From positions 1-63,670 of the forward strand of contig NZ_JAFKLZ010000005.1 of assembly GCF_017304615.1 (NCBI RefSeq): 63,670 nucleotides of DNA. Direction: 5' to 3'. Source of the stretch: Sphingomonas sp. (GTDB lineage: Bacteria > Pseudomonadota > Alphaproteobacteria > Sphingomonadales > Sphingomonadaceae). The notes under the pieces were generated by a model, which was not told the DNA's origin, ran no database searches, and worked only from the letters and a program-made list of their open reading frames with translations. Shown here piece after piece: positions 32 to 8,570 of the stretch (positions are counted from its first letter, which is position 1; each line of letters opens with the position of its first letter). Both the position numbers and the translations under genes were made by a program.

Positions 32-298
32 TCAATACAGCGCCAGAATGTCCGCCGCGGTGGTGCCGGTCGCGCGCACATAGGCCGCGCGGAACGGCAG
101 GATCGCGCCCGCGGGCACGTTCTTCCATACTTGGTCGGCCGCGCCGTCGACGCCGCGCATCGTGACGTTGCCGGCGGTGCCGACAAACAGCGCCTTGGGA
201 ATGTCGGTCAGCGCGTTGGTGTCGTGCGGCGTCACCGCGAGCGCCCGGCGCGCGGGCGCCGCCACCGCATCGGCGGCGGAGGAAAAGGGATCGGTCAT
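32..298 (-). CDS. GTA head-spike base protein (RCAP_Rcc01079-like)
   Basis: An 88-residue protein resembling the spike-base protein of the Rhodobacter GTA (RCAP_Rcc01079 family). That family forms the base of the head spikes that help the particle bind recipient cells. The visible match is the order DPF near the N-terminus, a VTPxDT turn, an AGNV segment, LPFRA and a C-terminal ATGTTA followed by a short hydrophobic end. The reading frame is open further upstream, but the extra codons run into a palindromic repeat, so the ATG just before TDPFSS is preferred. It follows the capsid gene on the same strand. The family assignment rests on remembered motif order, not on a search. Confidence 0.75.
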   Translation of the reverse strand: MTDPFSSAADAVAAPARRALAVTPHDTNALTDIPKALFVGTAGNVTMRGVDGAADQVWKNVPAGAILPFRAAYVRATGTTAADILALY

Positions 299-324
299 GT
301 TGGTCTCCGGACAGAAAAACAGTC

Positions 325-406
325 CGTCACCCCGGCCCTGAGCCGGGGTCCCGCTTCTTCTTGAAGACATGAGAAGCGGGATGCCGGATCAGGTCCAGCA
401 TGACGG
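325..406. repeat. Dispersed palindromic repeat, family A copy 1
   Basis: This roughly 80-bp element has two nested hairpins. It begins GTCACCCCGG, has arms CCCCGGC/GCCGGGG and CCCGCTTCT/AGAAGCGGG, and ends CATGACGG. Close relatives lie at about 15796, 32200 and 41545, always between genes. This copy lies between the capsid and spike-base genes and could act as a transcript-end or mRNA-processing structure. Confidence 0.8.
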
Positions 407-4291: not shown

Positions 4292-5638
4292 CTACAGCCC
4301 CCGCACCCGCGCCTTGCCCCGCCGCGTCAGCAGCAATTCGCTCACCGCCCACACCAGGGCATCCGCGCGGTCGGGGGATCGCCCCGGCCCGGCGTAACCG
4401 CCGGTCCTCAGCATCCCGCACAATTGATCCTCCAGCGCCGGGAAAGTGCCCGCGTGCCGCACCTTGGACGCCTCGTAGAGATGCAGCACCGGCTCCGCGC
4501 GCGCCGACTTGCCGCGGCTGGCATGGACCAGCCGCACCGGCAGCGTCATGTCCGCGCCCATCAGCACGTGGCGCACCATCTCCCCGCCCTGGTTCTTCTC
4601 CGCGACGACGCAGTCCGCACCGACCCGCTCCACGCACGCAGCGACCGCCGCCGCCCAGCCCGCGGGGCTGGCCCCCGCGACGCTCGCATCCTCGATCACA
4701 TAGCCGATCCCGTCCTCGTCCAGCCCAGCCGCGATGATCCCGCACGCGTCGCCGTCCAGTCCGGCGGGCGGATCGACGGCCACCACCACGCGGACCAATT
4801 CAGGCCGGTCGCCCGCTGCGATCCGGCACGCCTCGATCAAGTCGCGGCTCCACAGCGCGCCGTCATGATCGTCGAGCAACTCGCCCTCCAGCTCCTGCCG
4901 CCCAAGCCGCGTCCCGCCATATTGCTCCATCATCGCCGCAAGAAAGCTGGCGGGCAGATGAGGGTTGTCGCGGGTTCGGCCCTGCGTGAGCGCGTCCGCC
5001 TTTTTGGCCAGCGCGACAACCTGGTTGACCAGCGGCGTCCGGCGCGGCGTCGTCGTCACCAGCACGCGCGCATTCTCCCCGCCGCGCAGCCCCAGCATCA
5101 GGTTGCTGAACGCCGCTTCCCCGCCATGCCCCCATTTGCCGATCTCATCGCACCACGCCGCGCGATGCTCCGGCCCGCGCAGCAATTCTGGCGCGCTGGC
5201 CGAATAGACCGTCATCACCGCCCGATTGGCGAAGTGCAGCTCACCGTTCGTTTTCCACCAGCGCGGCTCGAGACCCCGCGATCGCGCGACCGCCAGCACA
5301 CCGGCGGGCCCGTCGACCATCACTCGGCGCGCGTCGTCGATCGTCGCGCCGACCAGCGCGAAGCGGCCGCCGGGCGCACGCGCCGCGACATCGGTCAGCC
5401 ATTCGGACCCGGCTCGCGTCTTGCCGAACCCCCGCCCAGCCAGGATCAGCCAGACCAGGGGTTCGCCATCCGGCGACAATTGCCCGTCATGCGCCCAGAG
5501 CGGCCAGCGCGCGAGCAATTCGCGCCGTTGATCCTGCGTCAACCGTCGCAGCGCGCGATCCTGCTCGTCCGGGGGCAGCATGGCGAGTTCCGCAATCAGG
5601 GCACGGTCGGCGGCGACCGCGTACGACGTTCCGGTCAT
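4292..5638 (-). CDS. terL: Large terminase subunit (DNA packaging motor)
   Basis: A 448-residue terminase large subunit of the GTA gp2 type, with an N-terminal packaging ATPase and a C-terminal RNase H-like nuclease. LILAGRGFGKT at about residues 64-74 is the Walker A variant, AAWCDEI is the Walker B region, and LVTTTPRRT is the coupling motif. VAVDPPAG and DRADALVWA carry the acidic nuclease residues. The ATG overlaps the small-terminase stop codon (ATGA), so the two are translationally coupled. In a GTA this motor packages host DNA by headful. Length and motifs look intact. Confidence 0.93.
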   Translation of the reverse strand: MTGTSYAVAADRALIAELAMLPPDEQDRALRRLTQDQRRELLARWPLWAHDGQLSPDGEPLVWLILAGRGFGKTRAGSEWLTDVAARAPGGRFALVGATIDDARRVMVDGPAGVLAVARSRGLEPRWWKTNGELHFANRAVMTVYSASAPELLRGPEHRAAWCDEIGKWGHGGEAAFSNLMLGLRGGENARVLVTTTPRRTPLVNQVVALAKKADALTQGRTRDNPHLPASFLAAMMEQYGGTRLGRQELEGELLDDHDGALWSRDLIEACRIAAGDRPELVRVVVAVDPPAGLDGDACGIIAAGLDEDGIGYVIEDASVAGASPAGWAAAVAACVERVGADCVVAEKNQGGEMVRHVLMGADMTLPVRLVHASRGKSARAEPVLHLYEASKVRHAGTFPALEDQLCGMLRTGGYAGPGRSPDRADALVWAVSELLLTRRGKARVRGL

Positions 5639-6156
5639 TCGGACTTCGCGGCCAGCCGCTTGCGCGCCGCCGCCAGCGCCCTGCGAAGCGCCGCATTCGT
5701 CTCGTCCCGGGTCGCCGCGATCGGCCGGATGCCGCGCCGTAGGCGCGAATCGCCGTCGCGCGCGCTGCGATACTGGCGCAGCACCGTCAGCGCGCGGTCG
5801 AAATCGAACGGCGGCGCGCCGGCCGCCGCGCGAGTCGGATCGGGCGGCTCGAGCGGCTGGCCCGCCCCGCCATGCTCCAGCACCAGCGCCTCCAGCGTGT
5901 CGTAACCGGCCGCCAGCGCATCGCGCCATTGCTGAACGAACGCCGGATCGCGCGCACGGTGGTAATAGGCCGTCGTCACGTCGATCCCGGCATGCTCGGC
6001 GGCCAGCCGGACGTTGCAGGTATAGGCCAGCGCATCGAGGAACAGCTGGCGCTTCTCCGGCGAAAACGCGTTTGCCTTGGGCTTGCGCCGCCGCTGCGGC
6101 TTGCCGTCCTGCCGGCCGACGGCCACGTCGTGATCGCCCTTCTTCGTGCGCCCCAT
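5635..6156 (-). CDS. Small terminase subunit-like protein (GTA gp1 type)
   Basis: A 173-residue protein preceding the large terminase, consistent with the GTA small terminase. A basic N-terminus (RRRKPK) is followed by a helix-turn-helix-like region with ARLAAEHAGIDVTTAYYHR-type spacing (residues about 45-65), then a helical oligomerisation region and a basic C-terminus. GGGAGA precedes the chosen ATG; upstream in-frame codons lack a ribosome site. It is the first gene of the cluster, and an IS1595 element starts 101 bp upstream, so its expression may differ from that of an intact GTA. Confidence 0.8.
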   Translation of the reverse strand: MGRTKKGDHDVAVGRQDGKPQRRRKPKANAFSPEKRQLFLDALAYTCNVRLAAEHAGIDVTTAYYHRARDPAFVQQWRDALAAGYDTLEALVLEHGGAGQPLEPPDPTRAAAGAPPFDFDRALTVLRQYRSARDGDSRLRRGIRPIAATRDETNAALRRALAAARKRLAAKSE

Positions 6157-6248
6157 GACTGTCTCCCGGCAACAAAAAGGGCCGGCAGGCGTCACCGCCC
6201 CGGCCCGAATCACACTTTCTCAACGTTCCTGTTATGTGCCATATCAGC

Positions 6249-6257
6249 GTGACGATG
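6249..6257. repeat. Left target-site duplication of IS1595 element
   Basis: GTGACGATG here is repeated exactly at 8445-8453, immediately outside both inverted ends. Duplication of about 8 bp is usual for IS1595-family elements. Confidence 0.7.
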
Positions 6258-6371
6258 GGCATTATTATATAAAGCGTACCCAATCAGGATCGGCGGTGCT
6301 AAATGAGCGCCGGTGACCGATCCCTTCTCGATTATTCGATCTTCCCGTCGCCGCCGCCAGGTGGAGTTACG

Positions 6372-7319
6372 ATGGTGCTAAAGGCGTACGGGGACGAAAG
6401 CGGCAAGCGCACCGCCGGGGGTGAAAGAGTAATCGCGCTCGGCGCCCTGATCGCTGAAAATTCCCAATGGGCTGTGTTTGAACAGCAATGGGCAGCAATG
6501 CTCGCTCATTGGGAAGTACCGTATCTGCACATGAAGGAGATACAGGAAGCGCGACTGAATCCAGATCGACCCGGTCCGTTTTCCCATTTGGCGTCTGACA
6601 TGATGAAGGTTCAGAGCCTGCTACATGGGGCGGTGAAAGTCATCGTTGATACTGGTTTGATTCCTCGCTCAATGGCCGTCTTTACCGATGATCTGGAAGA
6701 AGTGATGGTAGCGCATAAGGTCGCTGCCGACCCGTTTGCCTTCACGCTCTATATCGCTGTCGGCATGCTGGGAACTTGGGCGCTTAACAAGCACCCCGAC
6801 GACCCGAGCTTTGAACTCGTACTTGATCGTTTGGAGAAGGGGCATAAGCGCGTTGCCGAGGCGCAAGACCTCTACGAATCCGACGAATTTATGGCTTGGC
6901 GGGGATGGCCCATCGTTACTCCGCTCTCGCCCAACAATGGTCCCGGCTCCAAAGATATTTTTGGCTTGCAGGCTGCTGACCTCGTTGCATGGGTTACTCG
7001 CTTCCAGTGCGACAATATTAAGCAGTGGACGCTGCAAGTGAAGCCCACGTTGGAACCGCTGAACTTTAAGCAGTGGAGCGAAAGCATGTTTGAGTTCTTA
7101 GCTCGTCGGAGAGTAGAGCAGTCGGAGAAGTTCCCCTGGGGGGTCGTCTTTAACAGCACCTTTGCCCGACTTGTGCATTATGGCGGCATGGAGTTCTATT
7201 TTTTCGACAAAGAGCGCCTCGAAGGTCATATTTTCGCATCGCGGTCAAAGCGCCCTGACACGCGCATCATCGATTATTCTATTGCGAAGTCGGGCCGCGC
7301 TCGTCCGCTAAGCGCTTAA
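6372..7319 (+). CDS. DUF3800 protein, passenger gene of the IS1595 element
   Basis: A 315-residue DUF3800-family protein. Hallmarks are the extreme N-terminal AYGDESG, a HMKEI segment, and a C-terminal PNNGPGSKDIFGLQAADLVAW block whose Asp residues could form a metal site like that of RNase H-fold enzymes. No activity is established for the family. GGTGGAG six bases before this ATG supports the start; an upstream ATG at 6303 is in frame but lacks a ribosome site. The gene lies wholly within the inverted repeats of the IS and converges on the transposase. Its low GC content marks it as arriving with the element. Confidence 0.82.
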   Translation: MVLKAYGDESGKRTAGGERVIALGALIAENSQWAVFEQQWAAMLAHWEVPYLHMKEIQEARLNPDRPGPFSHLASDMMKVQSLLHGAVKVIVDTGLIPRSMAVFTDDLEEVMVAHKVAADPFAFTLYIAVGMLGTWALNKHPDDPSFELVLDRLEKGHKRVAEAQDLYESDEFMAWRGWPIVTPLSPNNGPGSKDIFGLQAADLVAWVTRFQCDNIKQWTLQVKPTLEPLNFKQWSESMFEFLARRRVEQSEKFPWGVVFNSTFARLVHYGGMEFYFFDKERLEGHIFASRSKRPDTRIIDYSIAKSGRARPLSA

Positions 7320-7446
7320 TCGCGCTGTCCATTAGTATTTCCGCGTCGGTGGGGTTGAGTTCGCCAGCGTCGATTAGCTTTTGCGCTTCTTGCTTGAACC
7401 GCTCGCTCTGATCCTCCGGAGTCTCCGGGGTTTTCTTCTCTGCCAT
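7279..7446 (-). CDS. 55-residue acidic ORF coupled to the IS1595 transposase
   Basis: Immediately after the transposase, TAATG joins the transposase stop to an ATG that opens 55 codons ending in TAG. The product begins MAEKKTPETPEDQSERF, is charged and helical, and has a short DAGELNPTDAEILMD segment. It has no recognised domain. Its last 41 bases overlap the 3' end of the convergent DUF3800 gene. The stop/start overlap strongly suggests it is translated as part of the element; it could modulate transposition or pair with the passenger. Confidence 0.6.
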   Translation of the reverse strand: MAEKKTPETPEDQSERFKQEAQKLIDAGELNPTDAEILMDSAIKRLADERGPTSQ

Positions 7447-8375
7447 TACGCGACCGCTCCACGAGTTGTTTGATAGGTCAGACGTTTGCCAACGATGCCC
7501 GAAAGCAGAATGTCAGCGCGATCAGCATCGTTGTAACCGAGGGCAACGCGATTGGAGTAGCGGAAATCGAACTCCGCCAGATAGCGGTGCAAGTGGTTTT
7601 CGTGGCAATGCTGATAGATGCCGCGCATGCCCCGCTTAAAGATCGAGAAGAAGCCTTCGACGGTGTTGGTGGTCACGTCACCGCGCACATACTCGCCGCG
7701 CCCGTGGGTGGTCCAATCGTGCGAGGCGTACTCCTTACCAACGGCGCTGTAGAGGCGGCTTTCGTCGGTGGTCAGCTTGGCTTCCTTGGCGATGTTGGCG
7801 CGAACGATCTGGGCGACCTCATCGCGGACCAGCGAGTTAGCGGGCATTGAGCGCGCTGCGCCGCTATCGCGGTCGATTAGCGCCACGACGCGCAGCTTGT
7901 GCGCCGAGCCGCCCTTGCCGGGCTTCTTTTGAACGCGCGGGTTGTAGCCGATGTAGGTCTCGTCAACCTCGACCCGGCCACCATTGCCACCGAACATGTC
8001 CGGGCTGCCATCGCGCATCGCTTCACGGATACGGTGCGACATGAACCATGCGGTCTTTAGGGTGACGCCCAAAGTCCGGTGAAGCTGATTGCTCGAAATG
8101 CCCTTCTTGCTTCCAGCGATCAGGAACATCGCCTGAAGCCAGATGCGGAGAGGAACCTTGCTGTCCTCGAAAATGGTCCCGATCTTGACGGTGAAGGGCT
8201 TGCGGCACTGGTAGCACTTATAGAGGCCAACGCGGGTCGATTTGCCGCCCATCAAACCGATGCGGTCAACGCCTCCGCAGTGCGGGCACACCGGGCCTTG
8301 CGGCCAAATGCGCGCCTCGACGTAGGCGTAAGCCACTTTCTCGTCGTGGAAGTGGGGAGATGAAAGAACCGACAT
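7446..8375 (-). CDS. IS1595-family transposase
   Basis: A 309-residue transposase of the IS1595/ISXO2 type. The N-terminal zinc ribbon has Cys30/Cys33 (CPHC) and Cys54/Cys57 (CYQC). The DDE-type catalytic domain shows EVDETYIG (Asp138), TDESRLY (Asp204), then NTVEG (Asn237/Glu240) followed by the conserved FFSIFKRGMRGIYQH helix with its Lys. The frame is complete with no internal stop, so the element may still be active. A TTGACG-type -35 lies within the right inverted repeat, so transcription probably starts just inside the element. Confidence 0.93.
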   Translation of the reverse strand: MSVLSSPHFHDEKVAYAYVEARIWPQGPVCPHCGGVDRIGLMGGKSTRVGLYKCYQCRKPFTVKIGTIFEDSKVPLRIWLQAMFLIAGSKKGISSNQLHRTLGVTLKTAWFMSHRIREAMRDGSPDMFGGNGGRVEVDETYIGYNPRVQKKPGKGGSAHKLRVVALIDRDSGAARSMPANSLVRDEVAQIVRANIAKEAKLTTDESRLYSAVGKEYASHDWTTHGRGEYVRGDVTTNTVEGFFSIFKRGMRGIYQHCHENHLHRYLAEFDFRYSNRVALGYNDADRADILLSGIVGKRLTYQTTRGAVA

Positions 8376-8444
8376 GGTTATGAACCTCGTTTGTTGAGGC
8401 CCTTCTACGCCTGAAAAGGTGGGTACGTCAAGTATAATAACGCC

Positions 8445-8453
8445 GTGACGATG
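8445..8453. repeat. Right target-site duplication of IS1595 element
   Basis: GTGACGATG, identical to 6249-6257, directly outside the right inverted repeat. Confidence 0.7.
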
Positions 8454-8570
8454 TCAAGAATAATTATCCCATTTGGTTATCATTGACGCTGGCGGCGATC
8501 CGGCGCAGTCTGGCTCGACCGGCGTGCCGCCCGCGCCCATCCGCTGGCGGCAACCCGGCAAAGGACGATT

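What the first reader, a model, noticed from the sequence alone, without database searches (positions are those of the whole stretch)
6249..8453. IS1595 element carrying a DUF3800 passenger and a coupled 55-codon ORF
Inverted ends (19 of 25 matching) and a 9-bp direct repeat delimit a 2187-bp unit with three genes: an intact DDE transposase, a 55-codon ORF joined to it by TAATG, and a converging DUF3800 gene. IS1595 relatives with passengers are known (established), but the three-part layout suggests that the small ORF and DUF3800 travel as a set. DUF3800 has the acidic spacing of an RNase H-like enzyme (inference).
Basis: partly seen in the sequence, partly recalled or inferred. Interest (0 to 1): 0.72.

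Follow-up and report, generated by a model that had tools for sequence, protein, structure and literature searches.

The report
Jumping gene with swappable cargo slot
A small bacterial jumping gene carries a nuclease-like passenger in a slot whose contents differ from copy to copy, and several copies have landed in the same promoter, the one in front of genes for virus-like gene-transfer particles.

Summary
In detail: a 2,187-bp IS1595 element (6258-8444) with 19/25 inverted ends and a 9-bp target repeat, and an empty orthologous site in a same-genus genome. The grouping is wrong. The 55-codon ORF goes with the transposase, not with DUF3800: 68 of 73 delimited relatives with transposase identity of 50% or more carry it, including 46 of 51 without DUF3800; 0 of 23 more distant ones do. 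DUF3800 is exchangeable cargo: 22 of 96 delimited elements carry one, always convergent; on the transposase tree the label needs 21 changes, no fewer than shuffled labels. All 96 delimited elements are 1.8-4.2 kb, so none is a plain IS. Other cargo includes two complete PD-Lambda-5 defence pairs and GmrSD-, PIN- and Panacea-type genes. The window's DUF3800 models as an RNase HII-like fold. A third of tested cargo start codons sit in the loop of a hairpin at the element end. Nine elements occupy one conserved promoter of a gene-transfer-agent-like packaging operon, in one orientation. Passenger-carrying IS1595 elements are known; the core small gene, the cargo turnover and the promoter site are the new part.

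The parts
6258..8444 (-). IS1595-family element, 2187 bp (transposase reads on -)
   Evidence: empty site in L228
6249..6257 (.). target-site duplication copy 1, GTGACGATG
8445..8453 (.). target-site duplication copy 2, GTGACGATG
6258..6282 (+). cargo-end terminal inverted repeat; lacks the TTGAC found in most transposase-end repeats
   Evidence: TTGAC in left only 55, neither 20, both 10, right only 1 of 86 delimited elements with transposase identity of 45% or more
8420..8444 (-). transposase-end terminal inverted repeat, contains TTGACG (likely -35 of tnp; inference)
7446..8375 (-). IS1595 transposase, 309 aa; D138, D204, E240 invariant among 21 aligned sequences
7279..7446 (-). 55-codon ORF, predicted two-helix protein, core accessory gene of this transposase clade
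6303..7319 (+). DUF3800 cargo gene (338 aa; alternative start 6372, 315 aa), RNase HII-like model
6287..6323 (+). hairpin (14 bp, -21.2 kcal/mol) with ATG 6303 in the loop; 24 of 14,417 GC-matched 37-nt stretches of the window are as stable
   Evidence: weaker (z -1.3, 30 shuffles)
8452..8457 (-). TTGACA, -35-like box of the interrupted promoter of the packaging operon
6232..6238 (-). CACATAA, -10-like box of the same promoter, now separated from its -35 by the element
5635..6156 (-). terminase small subunit, first gene of the gene-transfer-agent-like packaging operon downstream

Best explanation
This is one copy of a widespread 'cargo IS': an IS1595-family element whose fixed core is the inverted ends, the transposase and a small (about 50-70 residues) helical protein, and whose slot between that core and the far end holds genes that are replaced often. 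Shown by comparison: core, slot, turnover, mobility (empty site). Inferred: cargo is exchanged by recombination at the shared core and shared right end; in many copies the far end carries a ribosome-binding site and start codon folded into a hairpin, which dampens or times cargo translation; here the cargo is an RNase HII-like nuclease of the DUF3800 family that probably acts in conflict with phages or other mobile DNA or RNA and so pays for the element's upkeep; the small protein assists or regulates transposition. This copy entered the promoter of a gene-transfer-agent-like packaging operon between its -35 and -10 boxes and probably lowered its expression. The confidence below is for the core-plus-exchangeable-cargo reading; for the nuclease/conflict role I would say about 0.4, for translational control by the hairpin about 0.45, for silencing of the operon about 0.5.
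Against: No relative of this exact DUF3800 protein was found nearby (1 of 296 order genomes, itself; one weak hit in 384 other Alphaproteobacteria genomes; none in plasmids, viral or genome contigs), so its own selection cannot be tested. PADLOC has no hit for it. 24 of 37 cargo starts show no significant start-loop hairpin, and another fold test of the window's upstream region gave only z -1.3. The matched Pfam families cover at most 41 of 90 cargo proteins, so 'defence' is a lean, not a rule, and no enrichment test against a gene background was run. The small-ORF profile was built from copies next to the transposase and used with a loose cut-off, so those counts are partly by construction. 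Ends were accepted only with an exact duplication, so perfect duplications are partly by construction too. The plain packaging-gene proximity count (13 of 137) is not clearly above the control (1 of 43 loci with shorter flanks).
Confidence: 0.8

Rival explanations
1. The small ORF and DUF3800 form one functional unit (for example a regulator or antitoxin with its nuclease) that moves together.
For: All 22 delimited DUF3800 elements contain the small ORF; in 10 it stands away from the transposase, in 8 of these abutting and divergent from the DUF3800 start; the 23 delimited elements lacking a close transposase (and the small ORF) have no DUF3800. One genome (G016) has small ORF and DUF3800 together at a contig end.
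Against: 46 of 51 delimited non-DUF3800 elements at 50% transposase identity or more also carry the small ORF; next to the transposase it is coupled to tnp; DUF3800 genes outside IS1595 are common (76 PF12686 places in 67 of 296 genomes, 6 of them beside a transposase), yet only 12 small-ORF hits arose in 147 genomes, 10 of them in or beside IS1595.
Confidence: 0.08
2. DUF3800 is a transposition accessory nuclease rather than cargo.
For: RNase HII-like model; most frequent single cargo type, fixed orientation.
Against: Absent from 74 of 96 delimited elements, including close kin (L055/L058 have 90% DNA identity over the core, only L055 has DUF3800).
Confidence: 0.07
3. The right-end hairpin is a DNA-level signal (subterminal transposase or small-protein site), not an RNA control of cargo translation.
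For: Just inside the inverted repeat, often at one place (start codon 45 nt inside the end in 11 of 36 elements); palindromic.
Against: No equivalent at the transposase start (0 of 37); its loop coincides with the start codon although that lies 35-58 nt from the end in the 13 significant cases.
Confidence: 0.3
4. The element is a decaying passenger insertion with no function for the cargo.
For: The DUF3800 sequence is nearly an orphan; its Pfam score is just under the cut-off.
Against: All three frames are intact; D8 and D203 are kept in an alignment with 13-24% identity to the window protein.
Confidence: 0.07

Closest known systems
IS1595-family elements with passenger genes (tIS; Siguier, Gagnevin and Chandler 2009: content recalled, seen only as a cited reference in PMC5704250)
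   Same: Transposase family, inverted ends, target duplication, passenger genes; PMC5704250 (passages) describes tISs as insertion sequences with passenger genes, names MTnSag1 and tISCpe8, 25-bp ends and 8-bp repeats.
   Different: Here every delimited copy carries cargo, a second core gene is conserved, and cargo turns over faster than the transposase; IS1595 members (ISPna2, ISSod11) of 700-1287 nt are listed elsewhere (PMC7371123, passage of a table).
DUF3800 proteins (PF12686)
   Same: Y.DES start and LQAAD motif; RNase H fold as reported from AlphaFold in PMC10910872 (passages).
   Different: Located inside IS1595; no Rfam DUF3800 RNA at curated score in the window, though one relative locus, L203, has DUF3800-VIII at the gene's 3' end.
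Tn7-like transposons with defence cargo (PMC8649781, search listing and start of abstract only)
   Same: Transposon cargo that includes defence genes.
   Different: Here the units are about 2-4 kb with one transposase and mostly one or two cargo genes; the size contrast with Tn7-like elements is recalled.
IS10/IS50 protection against outside-in transcription (recalled, from no call)
   Same: A hairpin that hides a start site near the element's end.
   Different: Here it sits at the cargo gene, not at the transposase.

Membership tests
IS1595 family | IS1595 DDE domain and zinc ribbon | tested here: met
   PF12762 3e-32, PF12760 3.5e-11, NF033547 191.3 bits against cut-off 75
IS1595 family | terminal inverted repeats of about 25 bp | tested here: met
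   19/25; similar ends in relatives
IS1595 family | target duplication of about 8 bp | tested here: met
   9 bp here; 92 of 96 delimited elements 8 bp, 4 of 96 9 bp
IS1595 family | ISfinder subgroup (for example ISNwi1) | not tested
   no ISfinder copy on hand; the ISNwi1 name is recalled
DUF3800 (PF12686) | score over Pfam's curated cut-off | tested here: inconclusive
   20.9 against 21 bits; home-made profile E 3e-9
DUF3800 (PF12686) | conserved acidic positions and RNase H fold | tested here: met
   D8, D203 invariant in 18 rows; RNase HII/HIII top structure matches of the model
RNase HII | catalytic activity on RNA/DNA hybrids | not testable with these tools
   fold only; about 8-16% identity in the top structure matches
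Known anti-phage defence system (PADLOC) | match of the window's cargo protein to a defence model | tested here: inconclusive
   no family at E 0.01 for the window protein; 3 of 18 DUF3800 members match the candidate model PDC-M04A
Gene transfer agent (RcGTA-like) operon next to the element | HK97-type packaging genes plus GTA head-spike base protein | tested here: met
   terminase, portal, capsid; NF048002 spike base, Rcc01079 family, 103 bits against cut-off 28; that Rcc01079 belongs to RcGTA is recalled
Gene transfer agent (RcGTA-like) operon next to the element | particles that transfer host DNA | not testable with these tools
   needs experiment; the contig also ends beside the capsid gene

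The most novel reading that the evidence does not exclude
A lineage of IS1595 elements is a dedicated miniature shuttle for conflict genes (DUF3800 nucleases above all): tnp plus its small helical partner is the engine, the right end is a plug-in expression cassette with a start-codon-masking hairpin, and the shuttle repeatedly silences gene transfer agents by inserting at one place and in one orientation in their promoter, with selection on hosts or elements favouring those insertions.
Probability: 0.35. Interest if true: 0.8.

Novelty: new variant of a known kind. Interest (0 to 1): 0.62.

Why it matters
It turns a single odd insertion into a rule: in this transposase clade no delimited copy had an empty cargo slot, the contents are decoupled from the transposase, and a tiny conserved gene travels with the engine. 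Such 2-4 kb units could be a systematic source of new defence and toxin-antitoxin genes, because each slot flags a candidate. The recurrent hit on the gene-transfer-agent promoter makes a long-standing question testable: whether production of these particles is costly enough that cells gain by losing it. In the library searched (open-access papers only, seen as listings, with passages of a few papers) I saw no paper describing DUF3800 in IS1595 or IS1595 insertions in this promoter; this is not proof that none exists.

Tried and rejected
Looked for close relatives of the DUF3800 protein in viral contigs, genome contigs, plasmids, the order and the class: none useful, so direct selection tests on it were dropped. 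Rfam scans of the window found only two tRNAs at curated thresholds; three weak hits in 6200-8500 were far below their gathering scores. Rfam on 25 DUF3800-bearing IS1595 loci and 11 DUF3800 loci without them gave one DUF3800 RNA, in L203; a class-wide search for that RNA gave 1 of 240 genomes, beside a DUF3800 gene without transposase. Considered the small ORF as antitoxin of DUF3800: weakened by its presence with unrelated cargo. Its model is two helices with no meaningful PDB match; Pfam matches of the 47 members were weak and scattered, the best-supported HTH_DNAJC9 in 7 of 47 at E 7.5e-4 or worse. Stem-loop scans beside DUF3800 mixed likely terminators with other hairpins and were not used as support. 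The proximity count to packaging genes alone is weak against its control (1 of 43); the shared promoter sequence is the real evidence. One locus in that count, L050, has only a weak terminase match and no such promoter. Considered one ancient insertion in the GTA promoter: disfavoured because the duplications differ between hosts yet match within each element, though exact duplications were required for calling ends, and L055/L056/L058 share one. Papers PMC8101967, PMC6209633, PMC9208149 and PMC3646047 were searched for passages and held nothing on this association.

Full report
1. What is there. Ends 6258-6282 and 8420-8444 match at 19 of 25, inside GTGACGATG at 6249-6257 and 8445-8453. The transposase (7446-8375, -) is IS1595 by Pfam and NCBIfam. 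The 55-codon ORF (7279-7446, -) follows it by TAATG, and a 338-aa ORF (6303-7319, +) converges and overlaps it by 41 nt. The 338-aa protein scores 20.9 bits for DUF3800, just below the cut-off of 21. The element has one match in its 3.34-Mb genome.

2. It moved. In a same-genus genome with an 80% identical terminase small subunit, the orthologous intergenic stretch reads through the insertion point with one target copy (L228 1287-1383, 77% identity). The target lies between TTGACA and CACATAA on the minus strand, upstream of terminase small (5635-6156), terminase large, portal and HK97 capsid. The ORF next to the capsid matches the Rcc01079 spike-base family, which points to a gene-transfer-agent-like cluster. 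A terL homologue is present in 22 of 33 sampled genomes of the family. PMC9836097 (passages) states that gene-transfer-agent genes are conserved to varying degrees in about half of the members of Rhizobiales, Sphingomonadales and Caulobacterales.

3. Relatives. I fetched 60 regions that hold 61 of the 98 places; the 36 lower-scoring ones were left out. With the window and the 80 loci this gave 141 loci, 137 after 4 duplicates were dropped; one transposase per locus was analysed. A script asked for an exact 8- or 9-bp duplication abutting ends that match at 17 or more of 24: 96 of 137 were delimited. Many of the other 41 are cut by contig ends; they were dropped from element counts. All 96 are 1,774-4,153 bp, whereas transposase plus ends needs about 1.05 kb. 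None is a plain IS. Duplications are 8 bp in 92 and 9 bp in 4. They are AT-rich (mean A+T 0.73 against 0.42 in flanks), and 24 of 96 sites hold a run of five A or T, against 26 of 1,910 control windows.

4. The small ORF is core. A profile of 47 small ORFs (A2) finds a member (over 12 bits, a loose cut) in 39 of 39 delimited elements with transposase identity of 60% or more, 29 of 34 at 50-60% and 0 of 23 below 50%. It lies next to the transposase or at the far end, in delimited elements always on the transposase strand. The profile was built from next-to-transposase copies, so those counts are partly circular; the 28 distal ones in delimited elements were not in it. Among 41 undelimited loci some lack it (15, of which 5 at 60% or more). 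In a separate search of 147 genomes there were 12 hits: 9 inside elements, one near a transposase remnant (L226), one beside a DUF3800 gene at a contig end (L224), one beside a Panacea-like ORF without transposase (L225). In 23 close relatives pN/pS has a median of 0.57 and pN<pS in 99% of 253 pairs; the transposase gives 0.37. Synonymous sites are near saturation. The model is two helices, mean pLDDT 86, pTM 0.50, without informative matches.

5. DUF3800 is cargo. A profile from 28 ORFs at Pfam-hit loci finds DUF3800 at E<0.01 in 26 of 137 loci and 22 of 96 delimited elements. All 22 converge with the transposase, whereas other main cargo splits 35 to 39. None of the 23 delimited elements below 50% transposase identity has one. 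On a transposase tree of 73 rows the label needs 21 changes (19 forced by supported branches), against 19.0 for shuffled labels. Pairwise over 376 pairs the DUF3800 proteins have a median identity of 21%, their transposases 60%; shuffled sequences reach 28% at the 95th percentile. The two closest DUF3800 pairs have 63% and 56% identity in elements whose transposases are 57-58% identical, which fits movement between elements. L055 and L056 have 95% identical transposases and 29% identical DUF3800. DNA homology between close elements ends near the end of the core; L191 and L194 match over the core and the last 238 nt with no DNA match between. So cargo is exchanged inside a conserved frame. The exchange mechanism is inferred.

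6. Other cargo. Ninety non-DUF3800 proteins from delimited elements were scanned (alignment A4). Pfam: Panacea 4, PIN 4, GmrSD_N 3, DUF4145 3, HNH 2, P63C 2, integrase core 2 (probably a nested IS; not checked), single methylases, Schlafen AlbA_2 and others; the 25 families cover at most 41 of the 90. PADLOC: complete PD-Lambda-5 A and B pairs in L052 and L195, NsnA-like GmrSD proteins in L124, L133 and L180. A PemK-like toxin lies in L041. This leans toward conflict genes; no enrichment test against a gene background was run.

8. The right end as a cargo cassette. Among elements with a cargo gene that starts within 120 nt of the right end, the start codon lies 45 nt inside the end in 11 of 36 (transposase identity 55% or more), in most of these after a GGNGGTGCTA-like sequence (by eye). 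The start codon falls in the loop of a stem that scores at shuffle p<=0.05 in 13 of 37 cargo starts (10 of 15 with transposase identity of 64% or more), 0 of 37 transposase starts and 15 of 206 chromosomal ORF starts. In the window the stem is CGGTGCT-AAATG-AGCGCCG (1 of 200 shuffles as good); the 89-nt leader folds better than 190 of 200 shuffles, but a third test gave z -1.3. Elements share ancestry, so these are not 37 independent cases. Right repeats mostly lack the TTGAC of left repeats (55 left only, 20 neither, 10 both, 1 right only, of 86), which fits a built-in transposase promoter at one end only (inference).

9. The promoter site. Thirteen of 137 loci have packaging genes in the flanks, the window included; a control of 43 loci with shorter flanks had 1, so the count alone is not decisive. 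The site is: nine elements (window, L049, L055, L056, L058, L060, L062, L071, L128) lie in one conserved promoter (TTGACATCGTCACGCTG...), all with the transposase end toward the -35 box; in seven the duplication begins 17-18 nt after TTGACA, over the -10 region, in the window about 20 bp earlier and in L128 about 17 bp later (alignment by eye). Duplications differ between hosts but match within each element, which argues for separate recent insertions; exact duplications were however required for calling ends, and L055, L056 and L058 share one and may not be independent. In 17 usable regions upstream of this operon in other genomes of the family there was no transposase, and 6 show the promoter pattern intact; the other 11 did not match my strict pattern. 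Silencing is inferred.

10. Verdict. Element and passenger are ordinary in kind (passenger-carrying IS1595 elements are known). New here: the small gene as core partner, the never-empty slot with very fast turnover, DUF3800 as the commonest tenant in fixed orientation, the start-masking hairpin in part of the clade, and the recurrent promoter site.

Noticed in passing
window 6232-8457 and L049, L055, L056, L058, L060, L062, L071, L128: Nine cargo-carrying IS1595 elements occupy the same conserved promoter of a gene-transfer-agent-like packaging operon, in one orientation.
   Followed up: partly
L203:5591-5655 and L223: Rfam DUF3800-VIII RNA (59 bits against 40.2 in L203) at the 3' end of a DUF3800 gene beside an IS1595 transposase, and in L223 beside a DUF3800 gene with no transposase.
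   Followed up: partly
L052, L195: Complete two-gene PD-Lambda-5 defence systems as cargo of delimited 3.5-kb IS1595 elements.
   Followed up: partly
target sites of 96 delimited elements (for example L038, L043, L047): Insertions favour AT-rich 8-mers; several sit in T-tracts after GC-rich stretches that look like intrinsic terminators.
   Followed up: partly
window 32-370 (-): Spike-base protein of the Rcc01079 family beside the capsid gene; the window is a whole contig that ends there.
   Followed up: no
L168: One IS1595 element carries two different DUF3800 genes, both convergent with the transposase.
   Followed up: no
G000:C1:153244-153918 and G000:C4:11366-12166: The same genome holds two distant IS1595 transposases (36% and 31% identity), at least one in a 2.4-kb cargo-bearing element.
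   Followed up: partly
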